64,000 bases of DNA from Streptomyces rishiriensis (GTDB lineage: Bacteria > Actinomycetota > Actinomycetes > Streptomycetales > Streptomycetaceae). The translations under genes and the position numbers were made by a program. Positions 44,250 to 63,326 of the stretch are shown in pieces (the stretch's first letter is position 1; each line of letters opens with the position of its first letter). The notes beneath the pieces were generated by a model. It was not told the origin of the DNA. It saw only the letters and a list, made by a program, of their open reading frames with translations, and made no database searches. The stretch spans positions 310,001-374,000 of the forward strand of contig NZ_JAUSWV010000002.1 in assembly GCF_030815485.1 (NCBI RefSeq), given 5' to 3'.

Positions 44250-47200
44250 TCACCATCCGGTACGCCGCGCGTGCGTGAACGGATGCGGATCGACTGTGCT
44301 GCCGTGCAGGTGCGGCGGTGCCGCTTCCAGGCCGGCCTCGCCCATGGCGTTCCAGTAGTCCAGCGCGGTGCGGGCGTGGACCAGTCCGTGCACCAGGGGC
44401 ACATCCGCTCCGGAGGCGTGCAGCAGGGACTCCGCCCGGCAAGAGGCGAGGGTCCCCTCCAGCCACTGCCGCGCGAGATGGTCCGCGGTGGCGCCGGCCG
44501 GCAGTGCGGCCTCGAGATGCCGTTCGGTCGCGCCGACGGCGAGCAGACCGCCGCCGACCACGAGGACATCCCCGCGTTCCCGCATCCGGGTGAGGGCGCG
44601 GCCGGTGTCGAAGCAGTGCGGGAACGAGTCGTCGACGACCGTCGTGCCGGGCCGGAGCCGGTCGATGTCGAGCAGGGTGCCCCCGCCGCTGACCGCGGCG
44701 ATGATCAGGTCCGCCTCGTACACGGCCGGTGGCAACGCGGACGGGGTGGACTCGACCGTGTCGATGCCGGCGGGGCCGCGTCCCCCGCGCAGCCGGTCGG
44801 CGAGGTCCCTCAGCCGGGGACCGCTGCCCGGCGCGTCGCACAGCAGCAGTCGGCGCGGGGGGCGTGGTCCGCGGTCCAGGAGGAGTTCCAGCGAGGAGGC
44901 GCCGATCGACCCGAGGCCGACGACCGCCACATCGAGGTCGGCCAGATCCTGGCCCGTGGTGTCCAGCACCGCGTGCACGGTCTTCACCACGGACACCACG
45001 GTCGCGGCGTGCCCGGTGGTGACGGCCGCCGACCCCGCAGAAGTCGCGCGAAGCACGTCGAAGCCGTAGCCCGTCAGGGAGGGGATGATGCCCGCCAGGG
45101 AGACGCACCGGGCGCCCTCGCGGGAGGCCAGGTCGACGGCGCGGGCGGTGTGCGCCACCAGGCCCACCCCACCGGCGAGTTCGTCGGCGAACCGGGGAAG
45201 GGCGACGAAGCCCGACCGCCCCAGTGGGGTCACCACCGTCTCCAGCAGGCGAGGGCCCCCGTCGGGGAACAGCAGCGCGCGCAGGTCCTCGCGCGGCAGT
45301 GCCGCCTCGGGGATGCCCGCCAGCCGGGCAAGGTGGGCGGGCGCCGGCAGGTAGCCGACGAGCGCGGCGTCCAGGGAGCGAGTGGCGGTGACCGGGCGGG
45401 GTGTGGTGGTGACCGGGCGGGGTGCGCTCCGCCCGGTGGTCACGTCGGTCGCGGCGGTGAGGTCGGCGTGCAGTGCCTCCGCGAAGTCGGCGAGCGCCTG
45501 CGCGGTGAGCGCGGCCGACGAGGCGCGCACGGTGATCCGCAGGCGGTCGCCTTCCGGCCGCGCCGCCATGAACACGTCCGTACCTGCCGCCGGCGGCGTG
45601 AACTCGCTGCCTCCGTCGTCCCAGGACACCCGCAGGGACCGGGCGTCCCACGAGCCCAGTGCGGTGAAGTCCAGGAAGGTGAAGAAGAACTGGGAGGTGA
45701 GCGGAAGGCCGTGGGCGTCGCGTGGGGTGACGCCGGTGTGCCGCTGGGCGTCGACGGATTCGGTCAGGATGCGCCGCAGGTCCTCGGTGAAGTCGCGTGG
45801 CCTGCCCGACGCGCTGCCCGGGACGCCTCGCGCCGGACGTACCGGCACGGCGCGGGCGTACGGGCCGAAGACCCGGTCAATGTCGGGCTGCGGATTGTCG
45901 CGGCCGGTGACGGCGAGGCCGATGATCAGGTCGTCCTGACCGGTCAGCCGCGTCAGCGCACGGTAGTAGGCAGTGAGCACCGGCGCGTGGAGCGTGGCGC
46001 CCGCGTCGGCGGCCATGCGGCGCAGCCGGGCCACCTGATCCGCTTCGAGTATGAGGTCATGGGACACGTACGGTCCGGTTCCGGCCTTGTTCACGTCGTC
46101 CCGGTGCGGCAATCCGCGCAGGCGCGGCCGTGGGTAGGGCGCTTCCAGGCGGGCCCGGCGTTCGTCCGTCTCATCCGTCTCGTCCGCCTCGTCCGGCGCG
46201 ACGCCGGTGGCGGACGCCGGTTCGGTCCCGATGGCGGCGAGGCGGACGGCGTGGTCGCGGAAGGTGCCGCGAAGTGCGGGCAGAGCAATGGGTTCGCCGA
46301 CGGCGAGCGCGTCATACACCGCTGTCAGTTCGGTGATGAGGAGGGCTGCGCTGTAACCGTCGCCGATGAGGTGGTGGGCGTGGACGATCAGGACGTGCTG
46401 CCGCGGTGCGAGGGTGAGCAGTCGCAGGCGCAGCAGAGGCCACGCCCACGGTTCGAGGCGGCGGCACCGCTCGGCGGTGATCCGCTCCTGCACCTGGTGG
46501 GGACCGTCGAGGGTCTCGAAGTCGACCGGCAGCCGCAGCGTGGCCGGCAGTTCCTGCTGAACCGGCGGCCTGGCCCCGGCGGGGAAGACCGTGCGCAGCA
46601 TCGGGTGCCGCGCCACCAGGGTGTCCACCGCCGACTGGAAAAGGTCGGACTTTACTTCACCCGTCAGCGTCAGGCGGGCCAGCCAGGAGGAGTCCGTCCC
46701 TGGCGCGAGGGCCTCGGCGAGGAGGAAGCCACGCTGGCCGGGCGTGACAGGGAAGGGGTCGGACGGCCCCGGACCGTCGGTGCGGTGCGGCGCGGCGCCG
46801 GGGGTGTCGGCGCGGTTCCCGGCCTGCGCGGTATCGAGCACCGCGGCGAGCGCGGCGAGTGTGCGGTGGGCGTAGACGACGGTCGGGCGGGGCAGTGGGC
46901 TCCCGTGCTCCTCCAGGCGGGCGAAGACCCGCAGGATGAGTAGGGAGTCGCCGCCCAGTTCGAAGAAGTCGTCCTCCCGGTGCACCACGTCGACGTCGAG
47001 GAGGCCGCGCCAGACGGCGGCCAGCCGGACTTCGGTCGGTGTCACCGGGAGGCTTGCGCCGCGTGCGGGCTCCTCCTTCGAAGGGGTGTCCGAGGGACCG
47101 CCGTCGCGCGGACCGAGGAGCGCGCGGCGGTCGATCTTCCCGGTGCCGGTGAGCGGGAAGGACGTCACGGGCGTGATCCGGGCCGGCAGCATGTACGGCG

Positions 47201-50200
47201 GCAGGCTGTCTGCCAGGTGCCGCCGCAGGGCCACGGCGGAGGGCGGCGCGGCATCCGGCACCGAGGTGACGAAGGCGACCAGCCGGTCGTTGTCGGCCAG
47301 CGCGATGGCGTGCGCCACGTCCGGGTGGGTGCGCAGAGCCGCCTCGACCTCGCCCGGTTCGACGCGGTGTCCGCGGATCTTGACCTGGTCGTCGAGGCGT
47401 CCGAGGAACTCCAGGGTGCCGTCCTCGCGCAGGCGGGCGCGGTCCCCGCTGCGGTACCAACGCCGGCCGTCCCGGACGACGAACGCGGCGTCGGTGAGTG
47501 CCGGGTCGCCCAGGTATCCGGGGCTCAGGCCGATGCCGGAGATGAGCAGCTCTCCCGCCTCACCGTGTGCGGCGGGCTTGTCGCCGGGGCCGGCGACGAG
47601 CAGTTCGGTACCGGCGACCGGACGGCCGATCGGCAGGGTGCGGACCTCGTCGCCGGGGCGGGAGCCGATGATGTGACAGGTGGCGTTGATGGTCGTCTCG
47701 GTGGGCCCGTAGAGGTTGCTGACGCGCGGTCCCTCGCCGAACAGGTCGAACCAGCGGCGTACCCAGTTGGCGGGGAGGGCCTCGCCGCCGACGTGGATCC
47801 ATCGCAGGGCGGACAGGTCGGGTCGGGTCCCGCCTCGCCCGACCTGTGCCTCGGCCGCCGTGAGCAGTCGTTCCCAAAGGCTCGGCACGGAGCTCCACAC
47901 GGTGATACGCGCCTGTTCGACGTGGTCCAGCAGCAGCTCCGGGTCGCGGACCAGAGCACCGGGGACGGGAACCACTGTGGCCCCCGCCAGCAGGGGTGCG
48001 AGCAGTTGCCGCACGGAGGCGTCGAAGCAGGGGGAGGCCGTGTTGGCCAGCCGGTCGCCGGGACCGTAGCCGAAGGTGCGGACCGACCAGTCCAGGTAGT
48101 TCTCCATCGAACGGTGGGTGATGGGCACGGCCTTGGGACGGCCGGTGGAGCCGGAGGTGAAGATGACGTAGGCGGTGGCGTCTGCCGGGGGCGGGGCGGG
48201 CGCGGGCCCGGACGCCCTGCCGTGAGGCGCCTCCGCCTCCGGCGGTATGGCTTCGATCGGGACGAGTCCCGTGCCGGTCAGCCGGCCGGCCGCCTCACGG
48301 GTCGCGGCGTCGTGGACGACGGTGTGCGCGCCCGTGCGGGCAAGCTGCTCGGTCAGCCGAGCGCGAGGGTGACTCGCGTCCAGCGGCACCCACCCCGCCC
48401 CGGCGCGCAGGATGCCCACCACGCCGGTCACGGTGTCCGCACCGGGCTCGGTCAGCAGACCCACCAAGTGGCCGCGGGCCACCCCCTGGGCGCGGAGGCG
48501 CGCCGCGAGCGCGCCGGAGGCCTCGTCGAGGGCTGCGTAGGTGAGGCGGGCGGTGCCGCTGTCGACGGCGAGCGCGTCGGGGGTCGCGCGGAAGCGGTCG
48601 AGGAGCCGAGCGACAAGGTTCGCCGATGGTGCCCCCTGTTGCTCCGGCTCCGGCTCCGCCTCGGTCGCCGCGCAACCGTCCAGCGGCCTGTCCCGTGCCG
48701 TCGTCCGGTCCGTGGGGCGGGCGAACTCCACCAGTTCCTCGCGGTACTCGACCGACATACGCGCGAGGGTCCGCGGGGTGAACAGACGGACAGGGACGTT
48801 CCAGGAGAGCCTCAGCAGCGGGCCGTCCTCCCAGCAGAGCAGTCCGAGGCGGGTCGCCGCGGAGCCGGTGCCCGCGGCGGTCGGCCGCGCCGCCACGGGG
48901 CAGTCCGCCGCCGGTGTCGCTGGGAAATGGGCGAGGCTGAAGCTTGCCGGGCTCGCCGTACGCGGGCCCGGATGCTCAACGGGCACGAGCCGGGCGACGT
49001 CAAGACTCGTGAGAGTGCCGTGCCGCTCGCACTCCAGCCAGTCGCCGCGCAACCGCCGGGCCAGCGCGGCGAGCGGTTCGTCCGGGTCGACGTCGCACAG
49101 CAGCGGCAGGGTGTCGGCGAGCGGGCCCACCAGCCGGTCCAGGCCGTCGAGGCGAGCATCGCGCCGGGCACGGGCGACGTTCACGGTGACGTCCCGTCGG
49201 CCGCTCCAGCGCGCCAGGCACCGGACGTAGGCGGCGAGCAGCAGGTGGAACAGCGTGACGTCGTGGTCGGCGGCGCGTCGCCGCAGCGCTGCGGTGACCT
49301 CTTCGTCGATCAGGCCTGGGTGGGCGGTCAGCGGTGCCGAGGGCACGTGCGCGGCATCGCCGTCGTAGGGCAGGGCCAGCGGTGCACCGCGTCGGGACAG
49401 CAGGTCCGACCAGTGGGCCAGGTCCGACACACGGGCGGCGGACGGTTCGCTGTCGGCAGCGGCCCAGACGGCGAAGTCGGTCCGCAACGACGGCAGACCA
49501 CCGGCCGCTCGTCCCCGTGCCAGGGCCGAGTACAGCGCCCACAGCTCGGTGGCCAGCACGTTCAGGCTGTAGCCGTCACCGGCCACATGGTGGATCACCA
49601 GCACGAGATGCGCGAGGTCAGCGCTCTCCCGCAGGACCAGGGCGCGCAATGGAGGCTCGGCGGCCAGGTCGAACGGCCGGTTGGCCAGGGCGGCCTCCAG
49701 CTTCTCCACCTGAGGGGCGGCACCGCGCTCACCGCGCTCGTGCACCTCGTACCATCCGGACACGGGTGTCGCGTCGGCGATGAGCTGGGCCGGCTGCCCC
49801 TCGTCGTCCCGGACGCGCAGGCGAAGCATGGGATGCCGGTCGGCGAGGGCCGCGAGCGCCCGGCCGAGCAGGTCGGTGTCGAGAGGGCCGGTCACCGTTT
49901 GCCGGACCCAGCCGCGAGCGGGCAGGTCAGGGTAAAGCCGACTGCTGGTGTGCAGGGCCAGCTGTACCGGCGTGAGCGGGAACGGCGTGCCGCACGGGAC
50001 GGTCGGCCTGCCGGGGTCCTCCGGCGTGAGCGGGGAACCGGCTTCCGCGGCGGGTCGGGCGTCGAGGTGGGCGGCCAGCTCGCGCACGGTCCGGTGCTCG
50101 AAGAACAGCGTGGCGGGCAGCGTCCGGTCCAGCTCGCGTTCCAGGCGTTTGACGAGGTCGACCGCGGTGAGCGAGTCGAGGCCGAGGGAGAGGAACGGCT

Positions 50201-53200
50201 GATCGTCGGTGACGGCGTCGGCGTCCAGGCTCAGCGCCTCGGCGAGCAGGGTCCGCAGGACGGTGCCGGTCACGGCCGTCGTGGCGAAGGACGCGGCCGT
50301 CCGTCCGGGGTGGGGTCGCGCCGGGGCGGATCGGGTCGGGCCCAGCGCCGCCGGCAGAGCGGCGGACGAGCGCGGGGCCGTTTCCGGCGTCGGTGCCGCG
50401 AGGTCGGCGACCACCAGCTGGGCCGGGTCGAGAGCGCAGGCCGTCCGCAGCGCGTCCAGGGCGTCGGCGGTGGACAGCGCTCGGCCACCGCGCGGCGACA
50501 GCCCGCCCGCGGGCAGCTCGGCGGCCAGCCCCGTCCCGGCGAACGGGCCGAGGTTCAGCGCCGTCCACGGGCGTCCGGCCAGGCGCTCGGCGGCGGCGAA
50601 GGCGTCCAGGTAGGCGTTGGCCCCCGCGTAGTCACCCAGTCCGCCCGCCAGGCCCGGCAGCACCGAGGACACCGAGGAGAACGCCACGCAGATTGCCGGA
50701 CGCAGGCGCTGCCGACGCAGGACCCGCGCCAGCAGACGCGTGCCGTCGGTCTTGGCGGCGAACGTGGCCGCCGACTCCTCGGCCGTTGTGGCCCGCAACG
50801 AACCCGGCCGGACGACACCCGCCGCGTGGAACACCGCGTCGAGCCGCGCCAGCCGGGACAGCAGGGCGACCACGTCCTCCTCCACGGAGACGTCTCCCGT
50901 GACGTAGCGCGCCGTGGCTCCCAGCGCCGCGAGATCCTGCAGCAGCCCGGTCGGCGGTTGCGGTGAGCGGCCCGTGAGGATGAGGGTGGGCCTGCCCCGG
51001 CGCGCCAGGTCCCGGGCCAGGGCGCCCCCGATGCCACCGGCTCCGCCCGTGATGAGGTAGGTGCCGTCGGCGGGCAGCGGGTGCCGTCCGGGCCGTACGT
51101 CCGTCAGCGGTTCTACGCCGCGTGTCAGCCGGTGTCCCGCACGCCATGCCACGGTGGCGGGCCGCTCATGCGCCGCGGCCCCGTGAGGGGTGCCCAGTTC
51201 GGTCAGTACGGCTTCGAGCCGCTGTGCGGGGCTGTCCAGCGAGGACAGGTCGGCCGCGGTCACCCGTACACCGGGGGTCTCCGGTGCGACCGCGAGAGCG
51301 AGCCCGGCGAGCAGGGCCTGCGCGGGGCGCGGTGGTGTGGCGGTCCGGCCGGTGGCATGGGCGTCCTCGGTCAGCAGCAGCAGGTGTCCTGCGCCCGTCC
51401 GGTCCAGCAGGGCGAGCGCCTCGTGGAGCGCCGCGCGCTCGACCGCTCCGGTGACGGCGCGACCGGCACCCGGGGAGCCGGCGAGGACGACGACGGTGTC
51501 GGCCGTGTCCGCCGGTCCGTCCGGCCTCACCACGCGCGCGCCTCGCTCGGCCAGCGACTGTTCGAGTTCGCGCACGCGGGCACGGTCCGGCCCGGTGACC
51601 ACGACTCTCCCGGCCGCTCCCGGCCCCTGCCCGGCGGGCACCGTCGGGGCGGGGGCGTCCCGCCATATGACCCGGTGCAGCAACCGACTCGTCGCCCGCT
51701 CGGGCCAGTGACGCGCGCGCTGGTAGGGGTAGGTGGGCAGCGCGACCCGTCGGCCGCCCGGGGCGAGCGCGGTCCGGTCGGCGCCGGCGCCCCGGACCCA
51801 CAGCCGGCCCACCACCTCGAGCAGTCCCTCATGGGTCGCCCGGACAGCAACCGCCCCGTCGGCAGGCACCTCCGTGGCGACCGGCAGCGTCACGACGTCC
51901 CGCGTGCGTATGGTCCCCAGCGCCGTCCCGTCACCGGTGTCGCGCGCGATCGCCCGCACGAGGTGCGAAAGTTCCGCTCCCGGCCCGAGCTCGACGAACG
52001 TGTCGTACCCGGCGGCGAGCAGGCGATCCACGGAGGCGCCGAAAAGCACCGGGTACAGGGCGTGCGCCCGCAGGTGCGCCGCGTCGAGGGAGGGCTGCCA
52101 GTCGGCCGTGAGGGTACTGAGCAGCGGCACGGACGCGGCGGTGGGCACCATGCGGCGTGCGGCGTCCTCGAGCGGTCCGGCGACCGGTTCCATGAGCGGG
52201 GAGTGGAAGGCGTGCGACACCCGCAGTCGGCGCGCGGCGACACCTCTCTCGGACAGTTCCTCCAGGGCCCGCCGCACCGCACCCTCGCTGCCGGAGATCA
52301 CCAGTCGGTCGCGGCCGTTGCGGGCGGCGACCGCGAGCCGCCCACGCGACGCGGCCACCAGTCCGGCGACGACATCCTCACCGCCGCGCACGGCGGCCAT
52401 GGCGCCGGGTTCGGTGAGCGCGCCCATCAGCCGTCCGCGCTCGGCGGCGAACGTCACCGCGTCCTCGAGGGACAGCGTGCCGCCGACACAGGCGGCGGTG
52501 ATCTCCCCGACGCTGTGCCCGGCGACCGCGTCGGGCTCGACACCCCAGTCGCGCAACTGCCGGGCGAGCGCCACACCGAACGTGACGAGCAGGGGCTGCG
52601 CCACCTCGGTCCGCGCGAGCTCGGCGGGGTCGGCGGCCTCGTCCAGGCACCAGTCGGCCAGCGTGCGCCCACGGATCGGGCCCAGCAGCCGGGACGCCTC
52701 CTCCACCGTGTCCTGGACGACACCGGCCGTCGCATGGAGGGCGCGTGCCACGGCGGGGCGCTGCGTCCCCTGGCCGGGGAACAGGAAGACGACACGGGGA
52801 CGGGAACCGGCCCTCCCCGTGAAGGACCCCCGGACGGGGGACGTGCCGTCGGCGCCCGGCGCGGTGGCGGATGCCGTCGGGTGCTCCCCCGCGCGTCGGG
52901 GCGAAGCGGCGGACACCGTGCTCGGCGCCGTCGACCCCTCGCCGCGCCCGGTCGCCGCCGGGTCACCGGACTGCGCGGGGCGCCGTGCTGCCAGCGCGGC
53001 CAGACGGCCCCGCAGGTCGCCGTCGGCGAGAACCGCCAGGCGGTACGGCTTGTCGTCCCGGGCCGTGCCGGCCGTCAGGCACGCGTCAGCCTCGTCGATC
53101 TCCGGGTGGTCCCGCAGATGGGCGTCCAGGTCACGGACCGCGGCGTGCAGGGCGGACTCGCTCGCGGCCGAGAGAGTGAGGAGCCGGGGCCCCGGTGCCG

Positions 53201-56200
53201 CGTCGGCGGGTTCCGGGGTGATGACCGGTTCGGGGGCTTGTTCCACGACGGCGTGCGCGTTGGTGCCGCCGAAGCCGAAGGCGTTGATGCCTGCGACGCG
53301 GGGCCCGTCCGACACCCATGCCGTGGTCTCGGTGACGACCTGGAAGCCCGCGTGCTCCGGCAGCGGCGAGGCGGGCGCGCTGTGCAGGGACGCGGGCAGC
53401 CTGCCGTGCCGCAACGCGAGCACCGTCTTGACCAGCGCGGGGAGGGCGGCGGCGTTGAGCAGGTGACCGATGTTGGTCTTGACCGAGCCCAGCAGGCGCG
53501 GTCGCCCGTCGGCCCGTGCGGGGAAGGCGTGGGAGAGCGACTGCAGTTCGGTCGGGTCGCCGATGGCCGTGCCGGTACCGTGGGCCTCGACGTACGTCAC
53601 CGCCGCGGGGTCGACGTCGGCCGCTTCGAGTGCGGCGGTGATGACCTCATGCTGGCGGCGGGGGTTGGGCGCCATGAGACCGAGCGAGGTGCCGTCGTTG
53701 TTGACGGCGGTGCCGCGCACCACCGCGAGGACCTCGTCGTCGCCGCGCCGGGCGTCGTCCAGACGTCGCAGGACCAGGACCGCACCTCCCTCGCCGGGCA
53801 CGAACCCGTCGGCGGCGGTACTGAAGGCGCGGCTGCGACCGGTCGGAGACAGCGCCTGTGCCGCCTCCAGCATCCGGTGCGCGTGCGGCGTGAGGTGCAG
53901 GTTGACCCCGCCGACGAGGGCGAGGTCGCACTCGCCGTCCAGCAGGCTGCGGCGTGCGAGGTGCAGCGCCACCAGCGCGGAGGAGCAGGCGGTGTCGACG
54001 GCCATCGCCGGGCCGTCCAGGTCGAGGACCTGGGACACTCGGGCCGCGACGAGGTTCGGCAGGTTTCCGGTCAGCGCCAGGGCGGCAGGGGCGGTGTCCT
54101 CGCCCAGCGCCCGCCGCAGCACCTCGCGATAGCCGCTGTCCCCCACCGCGGCGAAAACGCCGACGCGGTGCCCGCCCCGCCGGGTCCCGGCGTAACCGGC
54201 CCGTTCCATCGCCTCGTGGGCGAGTTCCAGGAAAACCCTGGCCTGCGGGTCGAGGGTTTCGGCCTCCTCGTCACCGATGCCGAAGCAGGCGGCGTCGAAG
54301 GCGGCCGGGTCGTCGAGGAAAGCGCCCCACCGCTCGGTGGGCCGCGGATCCGGAGCGGTGTCGTTCCACCGGTCGGCGGGCACGGTGGTGACCAAGTCGC
54401 GCCCTTGGACCAGCAGGTCCCAGAAGGCCTCGGGGGTGTCGGCGCCGGGGAAGCGGCAGGACATCCCGACGACGGCGACGCCGGAGGAGGTATGCGGCGG
54501 GCGGGGTCGCGCGGCGAGGCCGGTCCGGCCCGCCGGCGGCGCCGTCCCGGCGGCACGCTGGGCGTGCTCCGCGGTGATGACGTGGTCCGCCAGGGCGGCG
54601 ACCGTGCCCTGCCGCATGACGGAGGGCTCCAGGACGACGCCGAGGGTGTCCTCCAGCGCGGCGAGCACCTCCATCGCCTTCAGCGACGTACCGCCGAGGC
54701 CGCGGAAGGTGTCCTCGTCGCCGACGGCGGAGGCGGGAACGCCGAGCACGGTGGACCAGACGTCCCGCACCGCACGCTCGGTCTCGGTGCGCGAGCGTGG
54801 GGTGCCGCCGGGCCGCGTCGACGCGTCGCCCGCCGCACCTCGCGGGCCGGTGGAACCGTCGGCCTCGGATGTGTGGGGCTTCCGCCCGGACGGAGCGGCC
54901 ACCGGGGGGTGGGCCACGGCGTCCGCGTACTCCCCCGCCTCGAAACGCGTCCGCATCACGTGTCGTCGCAGCTTGCCGCTCGTCGTGCGGGGGAACGCGG
55001 CAGGCGGCAGGGCAAGCACCCGCACATCATCGTGGTACAGGACCTCACCGACTCGGGCCGCCAGCCGTTCCAGCACGTCGGGCGCTGTCGCCGGCGGCCG
55101 AGCCCAGGGCACGAACACCACGACGCGCTCATCACCGTGTACCGGGTCGGTCGATCCGACCACGGCCGGGGTGCCGGGCGGCAGTCCGGGCGTGGTGGCG
55201 GCCACCCCTTCCAGGTCCGGTGCGTGGAAGCTACGGCCGTTGAGGAACAGCACGTCCTTGTGGCGCCCGCTGACGCACAGCCGTCCGTCCCGCAGGAACC
55301 CCAGGTCGCCGGTGCGCACCCAGCCGTCGCGGAAGGTCTCGGCCGTGACGTCGGGCTGCCGGTGGTAGCCGCGTGCGAGTTGCGGTCCGCGCACCTCGAT
55401 GTGGCCCACTCTCCGCTCGTCCAGGACATGTCCCTCGTCGTCGACGATGCGCACGGCGCAGCCCGGCACCGGACGGCCCACGTCCATCAGCTCCACGGCC
55501 CCGTCCGGCCGGTCCGCGTCCACCACCAGGCCGGTGCTGAGCGCCGCCCTGTCCAGGACGAGCGGCTCGGCCACCTCGCCGAGCGAGGGGAAGGCCACCG
55601 CGAGCGTCGCCTCGGCCAGTCCGTAGACCGGCTGAGCGGCCTCGGACCGCAGGCCGGCCGGCCGGGTCTTGCGGGCGAAGTCCCGCCAGACGGCTGCCGA
55701 GATCGGCTCGGCCCCCACCAGCAGGAGGCGTACGGAGGTGAGGTCGAGCCGGGCGACGGCCTCGTCGGGGACGCGCCGGACCACTAGAGCGAGGGCGAAG
55801 TTGGCCGCCGACAGGACGGTGGCGCGGTGGGCCGCCGCCGTTTCGAACCAGATGCCCGGTCTTCTGGCGAACGTCATCGGCCCGATCTTCACCTGCTTCG
55901 CGCGGGCGGCGAGGGGTGCCAGGTGAGTGCCGATGAGCCCCATGTCGTGGAAGTACGGCATCCAGCTCACCACCACGTCCCCCGCCGTGAGGGCGGAAGC
56001 CGCGCGTATCTGCTCCAGGTTGGCGAGTACCGCGCGGTGCGTCAGTTCGACGCCCTTGGGGCTGCCGGTGCTGCCGGAGGAGAACTGGACGAACGCGAGG
56101 TCGTCGGGCCCGCACGCCGCGGGGCGGACGAGGGGCGGGGCCTTTCGCAGCTCGTCAAGGCGCAACACCTCGACGCTGCCGGGAAGTTGGGCTGCCCACG

Positions 56201-56543
56201 CTTCGCATGCCTCATCGACGACGACGGGCGGTCGGCCCAACTGCTCCCGGACGGGCAGAACACGGTGTGCGTCCGCGGCAAGCGGGACCGGCACCAGGCC
56301 GGCCGCGAGCGCGCCCCAGAACAGCTGCTGGAAGTCCTCGCTGCGATCCGCCACCAAGGGCAGGCACGTTCCCGGCTCGACACCCGCCGCGCGCAGCCCG
56401 CCGGCCACGCGCCAGGCCTGCGCCACGAGTTCGCGCAGCGTGACAGTCAGTTCGCTCCCATCGGGGCGGACGTGCACCACGACTTGTCCGGGCGCCTCAT
56501 GAGCGGCGTCCACCAGTAGGTCCAGCAGGGTCGTATCGCTCAT
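44250..56543 (-). CDS. 4097-residue PKS-NRPS with acyl-ACP-reductase-like terminus
   Basis: Domains (approximate residues): FAAL-type AMP ligase 10-560 (FSSGSTGSPKG, PYFHDMGLIG); ACP 588-656 (GGTSLKAM); KS 687-1100 (Cys853 in DTACSS, EAHGTGT, NIGHL); AT 1250-1548 (GHSVGE; HAFHSP implies malonyl-CoA); KR 1827-2052 with a structural subdomain before it (TGGAGGIG, catalytic Ser/Tyr in SSVSSV...DYAGAN); ACP 2092-2160 (GLDSL); C 2185-2608 (HHVAGDG); A 2640-3145 (FTSGSTGRPKA; specificity residues read roughly DARSHGLINK, substrate not assigned); PCP 3170-3238 (GGDSL); C 3263-3698 (HHLIGDG); reductase 3730-4097. The last part resembles cyanobacterial acyl-ACP reductase (VAVVGLGSIGASS, and Cys4035 in ASCRAESLL) rather than a thioesterase. 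Predicted: beta-hydroxyacyl-aminoacyl chain, reductive release. There is no carrier after the second C domain. Confidence 0.9.
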   Translation of the reverse strand: MSDTTLLDLLVDAAHEAPGQVVVHVRPDGSELTVTLRELVAQAWRVAGGLRAAGVEPGTCLPLVADRSEDFQQLFWGALAAGLVPVPLAADAHRVLPVREQLGRPPVVVDEACEAWAAQLPGSVEVLRLDELRKAPPLVRPAACGPDDLAFVQFSSGSTGSPKGVELTHRAVLANLEQIRAASALTAGDVVVSWMPYFHDMGLIGTHLAPLAARAKQVKIGPMTFARRPGIWFETAAAHRATVLSAANFALALVVRRVPDEAVARLDLTSVRLLLVGAEPISAAVWRDFARKTRPAGLRSEAAQPVYGLAEATLAVAFPSLGEVAEPLVLDRAALSTGLVVDADRPDGAVELMDVGRPVPGCAVRIVDDEGHVLDERRVGHIEVRGPQLARGYHRQPDVTAETFRDGWVRTGDLGFLRDGRLCVSGRHKDVLFLNGRSFHAPDLEGVAATTPGLPPGTPAVVGSTDPVHGDERVVVFVPWARPPATAPDVLERLAARVGEVLYHDDVRVLALPPAAFPRTTSGKLRRHVMRTRFEAGEYADAVAHPPVAAPSGRKPHTSEADGSTGPRGAAGDASTRPGGTPRSRTETERAVRDVWSTVLGVPASAVGDEDTFRGLGGTSLKAMEVLAALEDTLGVVLEPSVMRQGTVAALADHVITAEHAQRAAGTAPPAGRTGLAARPRPPHTSSGVAVVGMSCRFPGADTPEAFWDLLVQGRDLVTTVPADRWNDTAPDPRPTERWGAFLDDPAAFDAACFGIGDEEAETLDPQARVFLELAHEAMERAGYAGTRRGGHRVGVFAAVGDSGYREVLRRALGEDTAPAALALTGNLPNLVAARVSQVLDLDGPAMAVDTACSSALVALHLARRSLLDGECDLALVGGVNLHLTPHAHRMLEAAQALSPTGRSRAFSTAADGFVPGEGGAVLVLRRLDDARRGDDEVLAVVRGTAVNNDGTSLGLMAPNPRRQHEVITAALEAADVDPAAVTYVEAHGTGTAIGDPTELQSLSHAFPARADGRPRLLGSVKTNIGHLLNAAALPALVKTVLALRHGRLPASLHSAPASPLPEHAGFQVVTETTAWVSDGPRVAGINAFGFGGTNAHAVVEQAPEPVITPEPADAAPGPRLLTLSAASESALHAAVRDLDAHLRDHPEIDEADACLTAGTARDDKPYRLAVLADGDLRGRLAALAARRPAQSGDPAATGRGEGSTAPSTVSAASPRRAGEHPTASATAPGADGTSPVRGSFTGRAGSRPRVVFLFPGQGTQRPAVARALHATAGVVQDTVEEASRLLGPIRGRTLADWCLDEAADPAELARTEVAQPLLVTFGVALARQLRDWGVEPDAVAGHSVGEITAACVGGTLSLEDAVTFAAERGRLMGALTEPGAMAAVRGGEDVVAGLVAASRGRLAVAARNGRDRLVISGSEGAVRRALEELSERGVAARRLRVSHAFHSPLMEPVAGPLEDAARRMVPTAASVPLLSTLTADWQPSLDAAHLRAHALYPVLFGASVDRLLAAGYDTFVELGPGAELSHLVRAIARDTGDGTALGTIRTRDVVTLPVATEVPADGAVAVRATHEGLLEVVGRLWVRGAGADRTALAPGGRRVALPTYPYQRARHWPERATSRLLHRVIWRDAPAPTVPAGQGPGAAGRVVVTGPDRARVRELEQSLAERGARVVRPDGPADTADTVVVLAGSPGAGRAVTGAVERAALHEALALLDRTGAGHLLLLTEDAHATGRTATPPRPAQALLAGLALAVAPETPGVRVTAADLSSLDSPAQRLEAVLTELGTPHGAAAHERPATVAWRAGHRLTRGVEPLTDVRPGRHPLPADGTYLITGGAGGIGGALARDLARRGRPTLILTGRSPQPPTGLLQDLAALGATARYVTGDVSVEEDVVALLSRLARLDAVFHAAGVVRPGSLRATTAEESAATFAAKTDGTRLLARVLRRQRLRPAICVAFSSVSSVLPGLAGGLGDYAGANAYLDAFAAAERLAGRPWTALNLGPFAGTGLAAELPAGGLSPRGGRALSTADALDALRTACALDPAQLVVADLAAPTPETAPRSSAALPAALGPTRSAPARPHPGRTAASFATTAVTGTVLRTLLAEALSLDADAVTDDQPFLSLGLDSLTAVDLVKRLERELDRTLPATLFFEHRTVRELAAHLDARPAAEAGSPLTPEDPGRPTVPCGTPFPLTPVQLALHTSSRLYPDLPARGWVRQTVTGPLDTDLLGRALAALADRHPMLRLRVRDDEGQPAQLIADATPVSGWYEVHERGERGAAPQVEKLEAALANRPFDLAAEPPLRALVLRESADLAHLVLVIHHVAGDGYSLNVLATELWALYSALARGRAAGGLPSLRTDFAVWAAADSEPSAARVSDLAHWSDLLSRRGAPLALPYDGDAAHVPSAPLTAHPGLIDEEVTAALRRRAADHDVTLFHLLLAAYVRCLARWSGRRDVTVNVARARRDARLDGLDRLVGPLADTLPLLCDVDPDEPLAALARRLRGDWLECERHGTLTSLDVARLVPVEHPGPRTASPASFSLAHFPATPAADCPVAARPTAAGTGSAATRLGLLCWEDGPLLRLSWNVPVRLFTPRTLARMSVEYREELVEFARPTDRTTARDRPLDGCAATEAEPEPEQQGAPSANLVARLLDRFRATPDALAVDSGTARLTYAALDEASGALAARLRAQGVARGHLVGLLTEPGADTVTGVVGILRAGAGWVPLDASHPRARLTEQLARTGAHTVVHDAATREAAGRLTGTGLVPIEAIPPEAEAPHGRASGPAPAPPPADATAYVIFTSGSTGRPKAVPITHRSMENYLDWSVRTFGYGPGDRLANTASPCFDASVRQLLAPLLAGATVVPVPGALVRDPELLLDHVEQARITVWSSVPSLWERLLTAAEAQVGRGGTRPDLSALRWIHVGGEALPANWVRRWFDLFGEGPRVSNLYGPTETTINATCHIIGSRPGDEVRTLPIGRPVAGTELLVAGPGDKPAAHGEAGELLISGIGLSPGYLGDPALTDAAFVVRDGRRWYRSGDRARLREDGTLEFLGRLDDQVKIRGHRVEPGEVEAALRTHPDVAHAIALADNDRLVAFVTSVPDAAPPSAVALRRHLADSLPPYMLPARITPVTSFPLTGTGKIDRRALLGPRDGGPSDTPSKEEPARGASLPVTPTEVRLAAVWRGLLDVDVVHREDDFFELGGDSLLILRVFARLEEHGSPLPRPTVVYAHRTLAALAAVLDTAQAGNRADTPGAAPHRTDGPGPSDPFPVTPGQRGFLLAEALAPGTDSSWLARLTLTGEVKSDLFQSAVDTLVARHPMLRTVFPAGARPPVQQELPATLRLPVDFETLDGPHQVQERITAERCRRLEPWAWPLLRLRLLTLAPRQHVLIVHAHHLIGDGYSAALLITELTAVYDALAVGEPIALPALRGTFRDHAVRLAAIGTEPASATGVAPDEADETDETDERRARLEAPYPRPRLRGLPHRDDVNKAGTGPYVSHDLILEADQVARLRRMAADAGATLHAPVLTAYYRALTRLTGQDDLIIGLAVTGRDNPQPDIDRVFGPYARAVPVRPARGVPGSASGRPRDFTEDLRRILTESVDAQRHTGVTPRDAHGLPLTSQFFFTFLDFTALGSWDARSLRVSWDDGGSEFTPPAAGTDVFMAARPEGDRLRITVRASSAALTAQALADFAEALHADLTAATDVTTGRSAPRPVTTTPRPVTATRSLDAALVGYLPAPAHLARLAGIPEAALPREDLRALLFPDGGPRLLETVVTPLGRSGFVALPRFADELAGGVGLVAHTARAVDLASREGARCVSLAGIIPSLTGYGFDVLRATSAGSAAVTTGHAATVVSVVKTVHAVLDTTGQDLADLDVAVVGLGSIGASSLELLLDRGPRPPRRLLLCDAPGSGPRLRDLADRLRGGRGPAGIDTVESTPSALPPAVYEADLIIAAVSGGGTLLDIDRLRPGTTVVDDSFPHCFDTGRALTRMRERGDVLVVGGGLLAVGATERHLEAALPAGATADHLARQWLEGTLASCRAESLLHASGADVPLVHGLVHARTALDYWNAMGEAGLEAAPPHLHGSTVDPHPFTHARRTGW

Positions 56544-57448: not shown

Positions 57449-58510
57449 TTACGAGAGAGGTCCCAGGATCTCCTGCGACTCGATGAGCCCCTGGTCGCTC
57501 GGGGCTGTACCGGCGTCGAAGACGCGGGCTGCCTGCTGTGCCCGGAATTCGAGATGGGCTTCGGCGGGCTTGGCGTAGCCGTAGCGGGCGCGGGCTTCCG
57601 CGGGCGTCAGTATGTCCTCCTTGCGGGGAGGAACGCCGAGCTTCATCGGCGCGATCACCGGAACCGTGGAGGGCGAGAGCCGTGCTATGAGGCGCAGTTC
57701 GGCCTTGGGGCTGAGGTGGGCGAGCGCGAAGGTCGCCTTCATGACGGGCACGATGAGAGTGTCGAGGAGGCGTGACTGCCGGATGCCCGCCATCTCACGC
57801 ATCCAGCGCGGCATCGTGGCAACCGTGGCGATTCGCTGGGCCCTCGCGACGGCCAAGCTCGCCGGCCTCGCCCAGCGCGGCGTCGGCGGCAGGACCAGTT
57901 CGCTCCTCAGCAGGTGGTTCATCGCCTGCCGGGCGATCGGGCTGGCGGACAGCCGAGGGCGCATCCGTTCGAAGTACGCCCGGACGCCTTCACGGCTGCG
58001 CGGAACGTCGTCCGGGGAGCACGTCTGCAGCTCTGCGGCAACCGCACACGCCTCCCAGTACTCGTCCTCCTCCTGCGCGGTGAGTTTGCCGGGTCCGTAC
58101 TTCTCGTACGCGTAGAGGATCGAGTGCCAGCCGGTGAGCTGGATCCACAGCTGCGAGGCGGGGTCGTTGGCATCGTAGGTCCCGCCGCCGTAGGGCAGAT
58201 TGCCGATCGCCTTGGAGTGGATCCTGACCAGGACGTCCGCGGCCCTGCACACTTCCCGTGAACCAGCGAAGGCCACCATCGCGAAGTACCGCAGGGTGCG
58301 GTCGTAGCGAGTGCGGGAGCGCCGGTAGATGCCCTGGGTCGCGTGGACGGCGGCCACCAGCGGCGGGTCGAGTTCCTCCACCACCACAGCCCGCTGGAAA
58401 CCGACCGTCGGCGCCGTCGGATAGCTCCAGACCTTCCAAACCACCGACCCCGGGCCGAAGAAACCGTAGTCCTCGTGCGGTTCGACCTCGCTCCACTTCA
58501 GCTTCGCCAT
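57449..58510 (-). CDS. MpaB/DUF2236-family oxygenase-like protein
   Basis: 353 residues. The family pattern is seen in GPGSVVWKVWSYPTAPTVGFQRAVV, HATQGIYRRSRTRYDRTLRYFAMVAF and ADVLVRIHSKAIG (His for haem). This is the DUF2236 or latex-clearing-protein-like family, of which some members are haem oxygenases. The start is ATG 58510. It diverges from a TetR regulator gene across a palindromic operator, so it is very probably that repressor's target. Substrate unknown. Confidence 0.85.
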   Translation of the reverse strand: MAKLKWSEVEPHEDYGFFGPGSVVWKVWSYPTAPTVGFQRAVVVEELDPPLVAAVHATQGIYRRSRTRYDRTLRYFAMVAFAGSREVCRAADVLVRIHSKAIGNLPYGGGTYDANDPASQLWIQLTGWHSILYAYEKYGPGKLTAQEEDEYWEACAVAAELQTCSPDDVPRSREGVRAYFERMRPRLSASPIARQAMNHLLRSELVLPPTPRWARPASLAVARAQRIATVATMPRWMREMAGIRQSRLLDTLIVPVMKATFALAHLSPKAELRLIARLSPSTVPVIAPMKLGVPPRKEDILTPAEARARYGYAKPAEAHLEFRAQQAARVFDAGTAPSDQGLIESQEILGPLS

Positions 58511-58549
58511 GTAGCCGCTCCTCGTACGTCCGGGGCGCACACCGCCCAA

Positions 58550-58590
58550 TTACGACACCACTGTCGTAAATTAAGGCACGCGTGTCGTAA
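58550..58590. promoter_or_regulatory. TetR-type operator: palindrome plus third half-site
   Basis: TTACGACA (58550-58557), four bases, then TGTCGTAA (58562-58569) form a perfect inverted repeat. A further TGTCGTAA is at 58583-58590, just before the regulator's GTG. It lies in the gap between the divergent MpaB-family gene and the TetR gene, as expected for an autoregulated TetR operator. Confidence 0.85.
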
Positions 58591-58599
58591 AATGCCAAG

Positions 58600-59250
58600 G
58601 TGTCAGCTCCCCCATCTTCGGAAGACAGGCCGCGCAAGCGACGCCCCTACGCCCCGCGGCTCCCGATCGCGGAACGGCGCGAACAGCTGCTGGACGCGGC
58701 TCTCGCCGTGATCGTGAGCGACGGCTACGACCGGGTCTCCGTCGACGCCATCGCCAAGAGGGCCGAGGTAGCCCGGTCGGTGGTCTACGGCGCCTTCAAC
58801 AATCTCGACGCCCTGCTGTCCGCACTGCTCGACCGTCAGCAGGCACGGGTCTTCCAACGACTGCTGGCGACGATCCCCAGCGCGGAGGACCTGCGCGACC
58901 CCGCCGCGTCCGCCTCCGAAGCGGTCCGCCGGATGTCCGCGATGCTCCGCCAGGACCCGGACACGTGGCGGCTGATCCTGCTGACTCCGGGCAACATGCC
59001 CACGGTCGTCCGCGACCGCATCGAGGCGGACAGGGAACGGTTCCGGCTCCAGGTCGAGGGATGGATCTCCCACGTCCTGGCCGACCACAGTGGCCCGGCA
59101 CTCGACCCGCAGGTCCTCGCGCACGCACTCGTCGCCTGCGCGGAACACTTCGGCCGCATCGCGCTCACCGATCCCGACACGTTCGACCCGGAGCACCTGA
59201 TCGGCCAAGTGCGCGTGATCCTCGACGCCCTCTTGCAGCCGACGCATTGA
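58600..59250 (+). CDS. TetR-family transcriptional regulator
   Basis: 216 residues. The N-terminal HTH is REQLLDAALAVIVSDGYDRVSVDAIAKRAEVARSVVYGAFNNLDALL, followed by an all-helical ligand domain. It starts at GTG 58600. The second half-site of the likely operator lies immediately upstream. It probably represses itself and the divergent MpaB-family gene; its ligand is unknown. Confidence 0.93.
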   Translation: MSAPPSSEDRPRKRRPYAPRLPIAERREQLLDAALAVIVSDGYDRVSVDAIAKRAEVARSVVYGAFNNLDALLSALLDRQQARVFQRLLATIPSAEDLRDPAASASEAVRRMSAMLRQDPDTWRLILLTPGNMPTVVRDRIEADRERFRLQVEGWISHVLADHSGPALDPQVLAHALVACAEHFGRIALTDPDTFDPEHLIGQVRVILDALLQPTH

Positions 59251-59338
59251 CGGCACGTGAGCGGAGAACAGCAATCCCAACAACGGCCTCGGCAGGCCAC
59301 GGGCGTCTCCCCTCACCCCCGACACCAGGCCGGGAGTC

Positions 59339-62300
59339 TCAGATCCCGGGTGTGATTCCGGTCGCCGGAGGCGGAGTTCGGGCGGCGACGCGGTCGTGTT
59401 CCTGATCGGCCAGTGCGGACAGGGCCGTTGCCCCGCAGCCAGTGAACAATGCTCTCGCTCGTTCCAGCTGCGCGAGTCCTTCGGGCCGGCGGTCGACGAC
59501 GGACAGTGCGATGCCCGCCGTCAGCCGGGCTGTGGCTTCATAGAGTGGCATTCGAGCTGCGCAGAACGCGGCAGCGGCCTCGCACGCAGCCGCTGCCGCA
59601 GCCGCGTCTTCCCTTGCGAGGTGTACCTCGGCGCGGGCCAGCAAAGCGAAGCCGAGCTGTCCGGGCGGTCTGTCGGGGCTCACAGCGGATGCCGCGCGGC
59701 CGGCCCACATGTCGGCAGCCACCACATCGCCCCGGGCCAGTTCCGCACCGGTCAGCAGCCGCAACCACACCGTGCGCACGGGTGCTTCGAACGCTGACAT
59801 TTCGGGGCCACCACCCGCTTCGATCACCCTGCGGACGCAGCCCGCCGGATCACCGGTCAACAGCAACGCATTGCCGAGCATCCCGAGGATCGCCGACCGG
59901 TACTGGGCCGGTTCGGGGCCGGCCTGCGCAAGCGACTCCTCACAGATCTTCAGTGCTCCGGCGAAGTCTCCCCGCCACATCGAGACCGCCGCGTTCACCG
60001 CCTCGGCCAGCGAGCGTGGCTCGTTGCTGCCGACGAGTGATGCCGCCTCCAGTGCGTCATCGGCGCACTTCGCTGCCTCGTCCAGATGCCCGAGCCACAT
60101 CAGTACGTATGCGGAGGCAGCGAAGAGATCGGCGAGCATGAGGCTTTGGCCGGTACGACGGGAAAGGTCCAGGCCCTGACCGAGGTGCCGGAGCGCGGCG
60201 TCGTAGTGCCCCAGGAACATCTCCGTCCAGCCGATCGTGACAAGGGTGTCGATCTGGTCGACCAGTTGCTGGTCATCGGCTTCGTCGACTGCTTCCAGTA
60301 CCCGGTCCAGGTAGTCGGTCGATCGGACGGAGTCCCCGGCCAAGGTATGTGCCAGGGCCAGCAGACTCCGGACAGCGGTGATCCGCCACGGGTCGCCGAT
60401 GGTTTCTGCCGAGTGCAGCGCGCGTTCGCCCCAACCGATGGCTGTCGGGAAGTCGGCTGTGCGAAGCGCCACCGTCGCGACCCCCATCTGGAGAGCGGCG
60501 GTCTCGGATTCCGGCCGGTCGTCGTGGTCCGCCAGTTCCCGAAGCAGCAGCGACGTCGCCTTCTTGTAACGGCCGAGCTTCCACTCCACCGTGGCTCGGG
60601 AGACGGTCAGCCGAGCCCGCTGAGCCCCCGCCTGCGCAGGCGGCAGAGAAGGGGTCGTGCGCAGGACGTCGCGGCTCTCCAGCAGTCGTCCGGCCATGCC
60701 CAGCGCATCGGCCTGCTGGAGCCACAGTTCGGGCCGCAGCCGACTCCGCTCACCGAGCAACCGCAGGGCTTCCTGCGTCCAGTGCGCGGCAGCGGCCGGT
60801 GCGATCGTCATCACCTGACGGGCGGCCCGTACCAGTACGTCAACGGCATGTTCGTCTCCCACCCGCGCCGAACGCTGAAGGTGCGACGCCTGGGCGGTCA
60901 GCGGTGCGCCGTGCAGCGCCAGGCCGTGCGCGGCCCGGGCATGCGCCTCGATCCGCCAGCCGGCGCCCGCCCCCTGGTACACCGCTGCCCGCACCAGCGG
61001 ATGGCGGAACCGGAATCGGCGCGTGGAGCCGATCTGGCGTACCAGGTCCCGCTCCGCGATCTCGTCCAGGGCGGCAAGGGCCTGTGCCTCACCGGTCCGG
61101 GCCACGACGGCGACCATCTCGGCTTCGAAGGAGTCACCGAGCACCGAGGCCGCCTGGGTACAGGCCCTCGCGGTGGCCGACAGACCTCCCAGCTCCTCCA
61201 GCAGTGCGGCACGCACCGATTGCGGCAGATCGTCGGCGACAGGCACCGCGTCGGCCGGGAGCACCGACGGGCTTTCGTTCCCGGCGCTTCGGGCCAGCGC
61301 CTCCAGGTAGAACGGGTTGCCGCCGCTGGCCTCGTACAGCCGTCGGAAACGCCAGTGATCCGGCCTGGCCCCGCACAGCTCCGCCCCCTCGGCCGGGGAC
61401 AGCGGCCCCAGCTCGATTCTGACCACACTTCCCTCCCTTCCGGCCCTCGCCAGTGCCGCGGCCAGTCGCGGCGGAGCCTGCCGGGGACGGTAGGCGAGGG
61501 CGAGGAGGAGCGGTGTCCTCGGCGGGTGCCGTACCAGATGGTCGATCAGCTCGGCCGTACCGTCATCCGTCCACTGCAGGTCGTCCAGGCTGAGCACGAG
61601 CCCGCCGTCGGCACTCAGCGCCTCCAGCAACGTCCGCACCGCTCGGTGGAACCAGTACCGTTCGACCGTCACCGGATCCGGCCCGGTCGGTAACCGGTCA
61701 CGGAGTGCGGGGAACACCGTACTCAGCAGCGCGAACGCGCCGGGCAGTGATCCATCGTGCCGGAGCCGGAGGAAGTCCACACGGCCGAGGTGGTCGTCCA
61801 AGGCGTCCACGAACGCACCGTACGGAGCCCGGTCGAACTCCACGCTGCGGCCGGCCAGGGTCACGAAACCGCGCGCTCTCGCCCGCTCGCCCAGTTCGCC
61901 GAGCAGCCGTGTCTTTCCGATACCCGGTTCCCCGACCACCTCGACCACCGCCGGCGCACCGGCCAGGGCATCCCCTGTCGCACCGTCGAGAACCGCCAAC
62001 TCCGCTGCCCGCCCGACGAATTGGCTCCCCGTCCGGGCGCGCCGCGGTGTCGGCGGGCCGGGCAGGTCGGCGCCGTCCCGTGGGGTTCCCACCGGCGGGG
62101 GCGTGGGCGACGGACCCGGCCCGAGAGCGGGTGCGGATCCCGGAGCACGCCCGGCAGCGGGGCCGGCGGCGGGGACGTTGTTCAATGCGGGGTCGGTGGT
62201 GAGGATCTGCTGGTGCAGTCGCCTCAGCGGGAGGCCAGGGTCACAGCCGAGCTCTTCGGCCAGCAGCAGCCGGATCTGCTGGTAGTGGTTGAGGGCATCG

Positions 62301-62929: not shown

Positions 62930-63326
62930 AGCACGCCCCCGACTCTCGGATCCCACCTTGGCATAACACCTTCGACCAGCCAATTCAACGTTTGCTCAAG
63001 GTTCGCCGACGGTCGGCCGAGCATCTTGGTCCAGGACAGGAGACAGCGGCACGAAGAACCCGGAGGGCCAGCTCGGCAAGCGTTCAGCGCACACAGCGAC
63101 ACGCCGCACCCGACGGGCGGGCGGTCTGCGACCCGGGGACGCGGAGTGGCGCCTCCGCACCAATTCCCCGGATACGCACGCATGTAGCGGCAGAACGCAG
63201 GCTGTCCCACTGAACGCACAGCGACCTCGCCCCGGGGTGCGAGCAGCACAGCCCTTGGGCCTCTGTCCCGTCGTCCACCCAGTGGATCCGTTCACCGTCA
63301 CACCATCGACATCCAGGAGGACCGCC
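62930..63326. other. 397-bp gap between divergent genes
   Basis: It separates the SARP gene from the secreted-protein gene and must hold promoters for both. AGGAGG six bases before 63327 is the ribosome site of the secreted protein. No gene was seen. Confidence 0.55.

What the first reader, a model, noticed from the sequence alone, without database searches (positions are those of the whole stretch)
44250..45360. Acyl-ACP-reductase-like (AAR) release domain at the end of a PKS-NRPS
The last ~370 residues are neither thioesterase nor SDR-type reductase. They follow cyanobacterial long-chain acyl-ACP reductase along their length: a substrate half (SLAGIIPSLTGYGFDV, VTTGHAATVVSV), the NAD loop VAVVGLGSIG, and ASCRAESLL, whose Cys4035 aligns with catalytic Cys294 of the Synechococcus enzyme (ACFAEAMLL, from memory). 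This would be an unusual reductive off-loading route giving an aldehyde.
Basis: partly seen in the sequence, partly recalled or inferred. Interest (0 to 1): 0.85.

Follow-up and report, generated by a model that had tools for sequence, protein, structure and literature searches.

The report
Streptomyces PKS-NRPS ends in AAR-fold release domain
A giant Streptomyces enzyme that builds a fatty-acyl amino acid ends in an NAD-binding domain related to cyanobacterial fatty-acid reductases; its closest solved relative comes from a pathway whose peptide ends in an amide, so whether this one releases an aldehyde or an amide is open, and the sequences suggest a test between the two.

Summary
A 4097-aa ORF (44250-56543, minus strand; FAAL-ACP-KS-AT-KR-ACP-C-A-T-C2-X) ends in a ~360-residue domain that is neither thioesterase nor SDR reductase. 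It is homologous to acyl-ACP reductase (AAR), and Cys4035 aligns with AAR's catalytic Cys. But AAR is only the second-best match. The best by sequence (E 3e-36; profile 2e-120) and fold (TM up to 0.89) is the solved "TAD" of the cyanobacterial carmabin synthetase, crystallised with NAD, NADH and a Cys-dephosphoCoA disulfide. Carmabin A, hectoramide B and vatiamides E/F end in primary amides; for hectoramide and vatiamide this domain is proposed to do terminal amidation, mechanism unstudied. An aldehyde is therefore not the default. A tree gives two sister clades: (i) TADs, mostly directly after a carrier protein, >10 phyla, Cys-x-x-Ser; (ii) this one, T-C2-domain, Cys-x-x-Glu as in AAR. Clade ii occurs in about 16% of sampled Streptomyces and rarely elsewhere, with a near-constant A-domain code and no conserved partner gene. 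Best guess: Cys4035 takes the chain and NADH reduces it to an aldehyde (0.5); amidation is the main rival (0.33). New variant of a known kind.

The parts
44250..56543 (-). hybrid megasynthase ORF, 4097 aa: FAAL-ACP-KS-AT-KR-ACP-C1-A-T-C2-AAR/TAD-like domain
   Evidence: GC at third codon position 0.89
44274..45326 (-). AAR/TAD-fold terminal domain (about aa 3740-4090)
44439..44441 (-). codon of Cys4035, putative acyl-accepting nucleophile; invariant in 77 of 77 homologues
44430..44432 (-). codon of Glu4038 (Cys-x-x-Glu): Glu in clade ii, in AAR and in two stand-alone relatives; Ser/Ala in clade i (TAD)
44901..44918 (-). dinucleotide loop GLGSIG (aa 3876-3881); Asp3903 at the end of the next strand (bases 44835-44837) is invariant and suggests NAD(H) rather than NADP(H)
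   Evidence: AAR arginines from PMC7089970
44613..44633 (-). DDSFPHC motif (aa 3971-3977), shared with TADs, absent from AAR
45429..46712 (-). C2: condensation-type domain with HHLIGDGYS between the last carrier and the terminal domain; present in every clade-ii locus long enough to show it
46794..46997 (-). last carrier (T) domain, LGGDS
47136..48593 (-). adenylation domain, pocket code D-A-R-S-I-V-L-I-N-(K); near-constant in clade ii
   Evidence: code positions assigned by hand against GrsA from memory
48624..49898 (-). C1 condensation domain, HHVAGDG
50538..54482 (-). one PKS module KS-AT(malonyl type, HAFH)-KR(YAGAN), no DH
54924..56543 (-). fatty acyl-AMP ligase (FAAL) loading domain

Best explanation
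The domain is the off-loading station of a one-gene assembly line and is a distinct clade of the AAR/TAD fold. The FAAL loads a fatty acid, the PKS module adds one malonyl unit and reduces it to a beta-hydroxyacyl chain, and C1-A-T joins it to one amino acid. The chain then passes from the carrier's phosphopantetheine to Cys4035. NADH bound at GLGSIG/Asp3903 delivers a hydride, and the chain leaves as an N-acyl amino aldehyde (possibly reduced again or cyclised), with Glu4038 in the place it holds in AAR. Shown: homology, fold, Cys position, conservation, NAD-type signature, domain order. Inferred: acyl-enzyme formation, NADH use, and the aldehyde product (mostly from AAR homology and the shared Cys-x-x-Glu). 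Unexplained: the role of C2. My confidence that it is an AAR/TAD-fold, Cys-dependent, NAD(H)-binding release domain is about 0.85; the score given here is for aldehyde release.
For: Fold match to carmabin TAD (TM 0.82-0.89) and AAR (TM about 0.65) from a pLDDT 90.7 model. hhalign with AAR: 98.6%, E 1.3e-15, Cys on Cys. Cys invariant 77/77, nucleotide loop and Asp invariant. The domain is the C-terminal end of PKS or NRPS proteins in the fused homologues. TAD crystals carry NAD/NADH and a Cys-dephosphoCoA disulfide (titles). AAR passes the acyl group to Cys294 and then reduces it with NADPH (PMC7089970). The AAR-type TR domain of PtTamH is reported to turn carrier-bound acyl chains into aldehydes in a coupled cascade (PMC9594044). 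Cys-x-x-Glu is shared by AAR, two stand-alone actinobacterial relatives and clade ii, and on the tree is replaced once, on the stem of the TAD clade. All synthase motifs are intact.
Against: Pathways with the nearest characterised domains (carmabin, hectoramide, vatiamide E/F) give primary amides, not aldehydes (PMC10949194). TTGH and DDSxPHC are shared with TADs and differ from AAR (TTGN, DGGYPKN). C2 lies between the carrier and the domain and is unexplained. No aldehyde-processing partner gene is conserved nearby, so nothing in the neighbourhood speaks for an aldehyde. No role for the Glu of AAR's Cys-x-x-Glu was found in the AAR paper.
Confidence: 0.5

Rival explanations
1. Terminal amidation domain: as proposed for VatR/HcaD, the chain on Cys4035 is released with ammonia as a primary amide. 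NAD(H) is either a bound helper or takes part in a redox-neutral route (acyl to aldehyde, carbinolamine, then amide).
For: Closest solved homologue is the carmabin TAD. Carmabin A has a C-terminal amide; hectoramide B and vatiamide E/F too, and the paper assigns terminal amidation to this domain. Moorena locus L030 has the same C-A-NMT-PCP-domain layout. TTGH, DDSxPHC and Asp3903 are common to both clades.
Against: Clade ii is a separate sister clade with Glu at Cys+3, VGGG for TEGG and AVSG for GATN, and C2 in front. The carmabin TAD paper was not readable here, and 'TAD' is not spelled out in the records.
Confidence: 0.33
2. C2 does the release (condensation with a free amine or alcohol, or ring closure), and the AAR-fold domain acts before or after that step or on a different substrate.
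For: C2 is a true C-type domain with the second His, Asp and Gly of HHxxxDG conserved and sits between T and the terminal domain in all complete clade-ii loci. Its fold neighbours include HtmB2-CT, deposited as a special condensation domain.
Against: No carrier or loading domain follows C2. The terminal domain's Cys and NAD motifs are fully conserved, so it is under selection for chemistry of its own. In clade i the same fold follows the carrier without any C domain.
Confidence: 0.12
3. Degenerate or inactive domain.
For: None found beyond the absence of a known product.
Against: Intact ORF, invariant catalytic Cys and nucleotide loop, retained at 57-71% identity across Streptomyces.
Confidence: 0.05

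Closest known systems
TAD of the carmabin synthetase (PDB 9E4S, 9E4U, 9E4X, 9E50, 9E56)
   Same: full-length homology (profile E 2e-120), fold (TM 0.82-0.89), GLGSxG, TTGH, DDSxPHCF, conserved Cys, NAD(H) binding in the crystals; part of a megasynthase
   Different: about 27% identity; TAD sequence has Cys-x-x-Ser (GCAFSALL), SEGG and ATN where this has Cys-x-x-Glu, VGGG and AVS; clade-i domains mostly follow the carrier directly, this one follows a C2 domain
'Amidotransferase' domains of VatR and HcaD (vatiamide, hectoramide; PMC10949194)
   Same: terminal, TE-less off-loading domain of about 430 aa after an NRPS module; Moorena homologues with the same layout (L030) belong to the same fold family
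   Different: direct PCP-domain junction; products are primary amides; L030-type homologues fall in clade i
Cyanobacterial acyl-ACP reductase (AAR; PDB 6JZQ-6JZZ, TIGR04058)
   Same: fold, Rossmann mid-domain, catalytic Cys position, Cys-x-x-Glu
   Different: TM about 0.65; 18.5 bits against cut-off 449.7; NADPH arginines replaced by an Asp; AAR is a stand-alone protein of alkane synthesis with TTGN and DGGYPKN motifs
TR domains of PtTamH and PigE (tambjamine, prodigiosin)
   Same: AAR-family reductase fused to another enzyme of natural-product synthesis; PigE is the best NCBIfam hit (E 1.7e-11)
   Different: fused to a transaminase, acts in trans on acyl-ACP; the aldehyde becomes an amine
SDR-type R domains of NRPS/PKS (e.g. 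ATRed, tilivalline; PMC7586950)
   Same: position and proposed outcome (reductive off-loading)
   Different: another family; no such Pfam match here

Membership tests
Acyl-ACP reductase (AAR, TIGR04058) | score above the curated family cut-off | tested here: not met
   18.5 bits against 449.7
Acyl-ACP reductase (AAR, TIGR04058) | catalytic Cys (Cys294 equivalent) | tested here: met
   Cys4035 in the aligned column; invariant 77/77
Acyl-ACP reductase (AAR, TIGR04058) | NADPH site with Arg189/Arg193 (phosphate-binding) | tested here: not met
   LCD with invariant Asp3903 in this stretch instead
Acyl-ACP reductase (AAR, TIGR04058) | reduces acyl-ACP to aldehyde | not testable with these tools
   needs an assay
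Carmabin-type TAD | full-length sequence and fold homology | tested here: met
   profile E 2e-120, TM 0.82-0.89
Carmabin-type TAD | NAD-type nucleotide loop, TTGH, DDSxPHC, conserved Cys | tested here: met
Carmabin-type TAD | clade i of the tree, with Cys-x-x-Ser and TEGG | tested here: not met
   sister clade ii (SH-aLRT 93 and 83 in two trees), Glu at Cys+3 in 45/45
Carmabin-type TAD | placed directly after the terminal carrier protein | tested here: not met
   C2 lies between T and the domain
Carmabin-type TAD | product is a C-terminal primary amide | not testable with these tools
   product of this synthase unknown
SDR-type R domain / thioesterase | Pfam NAD_binding_4 or Thioesterase match | tested here: not met
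   no match up to E 1

The most novel reading that the evidence does not exclude
One protein fold ends assembly lines in two chemically different ways, switched near the catalytic Cys: Cys-x-x-Glu (AAR and clade ii) reduces the acyl-enzyme to a free aldehyde, while Cys-x-x-Ser (TAD clade i) keeps the aldehyde, adds ammonia and re-oxidises the adduct with the same NAD to give an amide. Clade ii additionally couples the step to a dedicated C-type domain.
Probability: 0.15. Interest if true: 0.8.

Novelty: new variant of a known kind. Interest (0 to 1): 0.55.

Why it matters
Release domains decide what end group a peptide or polyketide carries. This family (no Pfam or NCBIfam model of its own) is spread over more than ten phyla, yet the mechanism was described as unstudied in 2024 and only the carmabin TAD was found solved in the PDB. 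The clade found here is carried by about one in six sampled Streptomyces as an apparently single-gene pathway with a near-constant amino-acid pocket, so one conserved, apparently uncharacterised lipo-amino compound may be made by many strains. The Cys-x-x-Glu/Ser split gives a cheap test of reduction against amidation.

Tried and rejected
Thioesterase and SDR R domain: rejected, no match. Amino-acid dehydrogenase or FolD-like: only the Rossmann half matches weakly. C2 as epimerisation domain: rejected on motif (HHLIGDGYS, GPYARAVPVR rather than E-type motifs, from memory) and on best PDB hits to C domains. Conserved partner gene that would reveal the product: none across 21 sampled Streptomyces neighbourhoods plus the window and S. 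fungicidicus; only synteny among close relatives. A link to the hydrogenase genes next to the S. fungicidicus copy: not a recurrent neighbour in that comparison. Literature searches for the PDB entries, AAR-like release domains and the Streptomyces synthase found no paper on them; the vatiamide paper is not held. A-domain code DARSIVLIN: no match to a substrate I know, so the amino acid is left open. The T-C2-domain model (pTM 0.58) is too uncertain for statements on domain arrangement.

Full report
WHAT IS THERE. The minus-strand ORF 44250-56543 codes for 4097 residues. Its third-codon GC of 0.89 fits a real high-GC gene. Pfam and NCBIfam give, in order, a fatty acyl-AMP ligase, ACP, KS, AT, KR, ACP, C, A, T and a second C domain. 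Catalytic motifs are intact: KS DTACSS and HGTGT, malonyl-type AT HAFH, KR YxxxN, HHxxxDG in both C domains, three carrier serines. There is no DH, so the chain handed to C1 should be a beta-hydroxyacyl group (inference). After C2 come about 360 residues with no Pfam family above cut-off, no thioesterase and no SDR R domain. The gene lies in a 9.07 Mb genome; 'Streptomyces' is inferred from the nearest named homologues.

IS IT AAR-LIKE? Yes, distantly. NCBIfam scores PigE at E 1.7e-11 and AAR at E 1e-3, the latter far below its cut-off. A profile of 77 homologues against three cyanobacterial AARs and one further AAR-like protein gives probability 98.6%, E 1.3e-15, and puts Cys4035 on the Cys of ACFAESMLL. 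The Cys is invariant in 77 of 77 homologues, as are GxGxxG, Asp3903, Asp3971-Asp3972-Ser3973, Arg3986 and Asp3992.

WHAT IT IS CLOSER TO. The best PDB match is 9E4X/9E4S, E 3e-36 by phmmer and 2e-120 by profile. An AlphaFold model (pLDDT 90.7, pTM 0.92) matches these entries at TM 0.82-0.89 and AAR at about 0.65. Their titles read 'TAD from Carmabin Biosynthetic Pathway', with NAD, with NADH, and with a disulfide between Cys2238 and dephosphocoenzyme A. Carmabin A has a C-terminal amide. The hectoramide B paper says that the domain after the last PCP in HcaD and VatR is believed to off-load by terminal amidation, perhaps by ammonolysis, and that the enzymology has not been studied; it lists carmabin A and vatiamides E and F among such terminal amides (PMC10949194). 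Moorena locus L030 in my set has the same C-A-NMT-PCP-domain layout. I take TAD to mean terminal amidation domain, but no record spells it out. The solved Cys2238 could not be mapped by numbering; it is most likely the invariant one.

TWO CLADES. A scan of one genome for each of 84,980 species gave 188 relatives, of which the best 80 were kept. In a tree rooted on AAR, 52 domains (clade i: Cyanobacteria, Chloroflexota, Bacillota, Verrucomicrobiota, Planctomycetota, Pseudomonadota and others) separate from 25 (clade ii, including the window) (repeated with other rows; SH-aLRT 98 and 94 for clade i, 93 and 83 for clade ii). Clade i domains mostly follow a carrier directly, or are stand-alone beside NRPS genes in Pantoea and its relatives in Erwinia, Hahella and Robbsia. 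Clade ii domains sit behind a C-type domain in every locus long enough to show it, in Actinomycetota, Chloroflexota, Sericytochromatia and Myxococcota. The A-domain pocket of clade ii is nearly constant, D-A-R-S-(I/V)-(V/L)-L-(I/V)-N, in all 21 readable cases. Diagnostic residues: Cys+3 is Glu in clade ii (45/45), in AAR (4/4) and in two stand-alone actinobacterial relatives, but Ser or Ala in clade i; VGGG against TEGG; AVSG against GATN. Both clades share TTGH, DDSxPHC and the NAD-type Asp, unlike AAR.

DISTRIBUTION AND NEIGHBOURHOOD. The domain occurs in 49 of 296 sampled genomes of the genus (window's own included), mostly at the end of ~4000-4700 aa ORFs; by identity about 47 of the 49 are clade-ii-like, three of them only as fragments. 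Outside the genus it is rare in the class. Flanking genes of 21 Streptomyces copies, the window and S. fungicidicus share nothing beyond synteny among close relatives, so the synthase looks like a one-gene pathway and its direct product may be the final one (inference).

MECHANISM. Best-supported common core: acyl transfer from the carrier to Cys4035, in a cleft shared by NAD(H) and the pantetheine arm, as in AAR (PMC7089970) and as the Cys-dephosphoCoA disulfide of TAD suggests. What follows is not shown. Reduction by NADH to an aldehyde is favoured because of the cofactor and the retained Cys-x-x-Glu; amidation is the rival because the nearest characterised pathways give amides. I put these at 0.5 and 0.33. 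C2 is intact and unexplained.

VERDICT. A real, well-conserved, unusual off-loading domain. The kind is known (AAR fold, TAD structures released in 2025); the C2-coupled Cys-x-x-Glu clade is a new variant as far as the sources searched here show.

Noticed in passing
window 1289-25619, minus strand mostly: Separate gene cluster that looks like a carbamoylated aminocyclitol or sugar-type pathway: DHQ-synthase-like enzyme (19699-20745), shikimate-dehydrogenase-like (18839-19690), two DegT aminotransferases (11293-14788), carbamoyltransferase (14811-16538), Rieske oxygenase (17691-18851), two radical SAM enzymes (one with a B12 domain), GFO/IDH dehydrogenases, AMP-ligase, FkbM methyltransferase, two free-standing condensation-domain proteins and a PPTase (24873-25619).
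   Followed up: partly
window 57449-62983: Upstream of the synthase: MpaB/rubber-oxygenase-like protein, TetR regulator and a large SARP-type (BTAD/AAA/TPR) regulator.
   Followed up: no
L152:6592-7911 and L153:6541-7734: Stand-alone relatives in actinobacteria with Cys-x-x-Glu and DDSQPYCW; a KS gene lies near the L152 one. They may be free-standing acyl-ACP reductases of another pathway.
   Followed up: partly
L151:6677-8512: Stand-alone Streptomyces relative with Cys-x-x-Ser near two FAAL/acyl-ligase-like genes; joins clade i in the tree on a long branch.
   Followed up: partly
L022:5417-20909 (Pantoea stewartii plasmid) and L023-L026: Stand-alone TAD-like gene within an NRPS/PKS cluster with an FMN luciferase-like monooxygenase and a FAAL-NRPS, with relatives in Erwinia, Hahella and Robbsia.
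   Followed up: no
L021:9360-21137: S. fungicidicus carries its copy on a 927 kb plasmid beside hydrogenase maturation genes (hypABCDEF).
   Followed up: partly
L052, L068: Clade-i domain fused directly to PKS modules (KS-AT-KR-domain, AT-KR-domain) without any NRPS part seen in Planctomycetota, so the family may also end polyketides.
   Followed up: no
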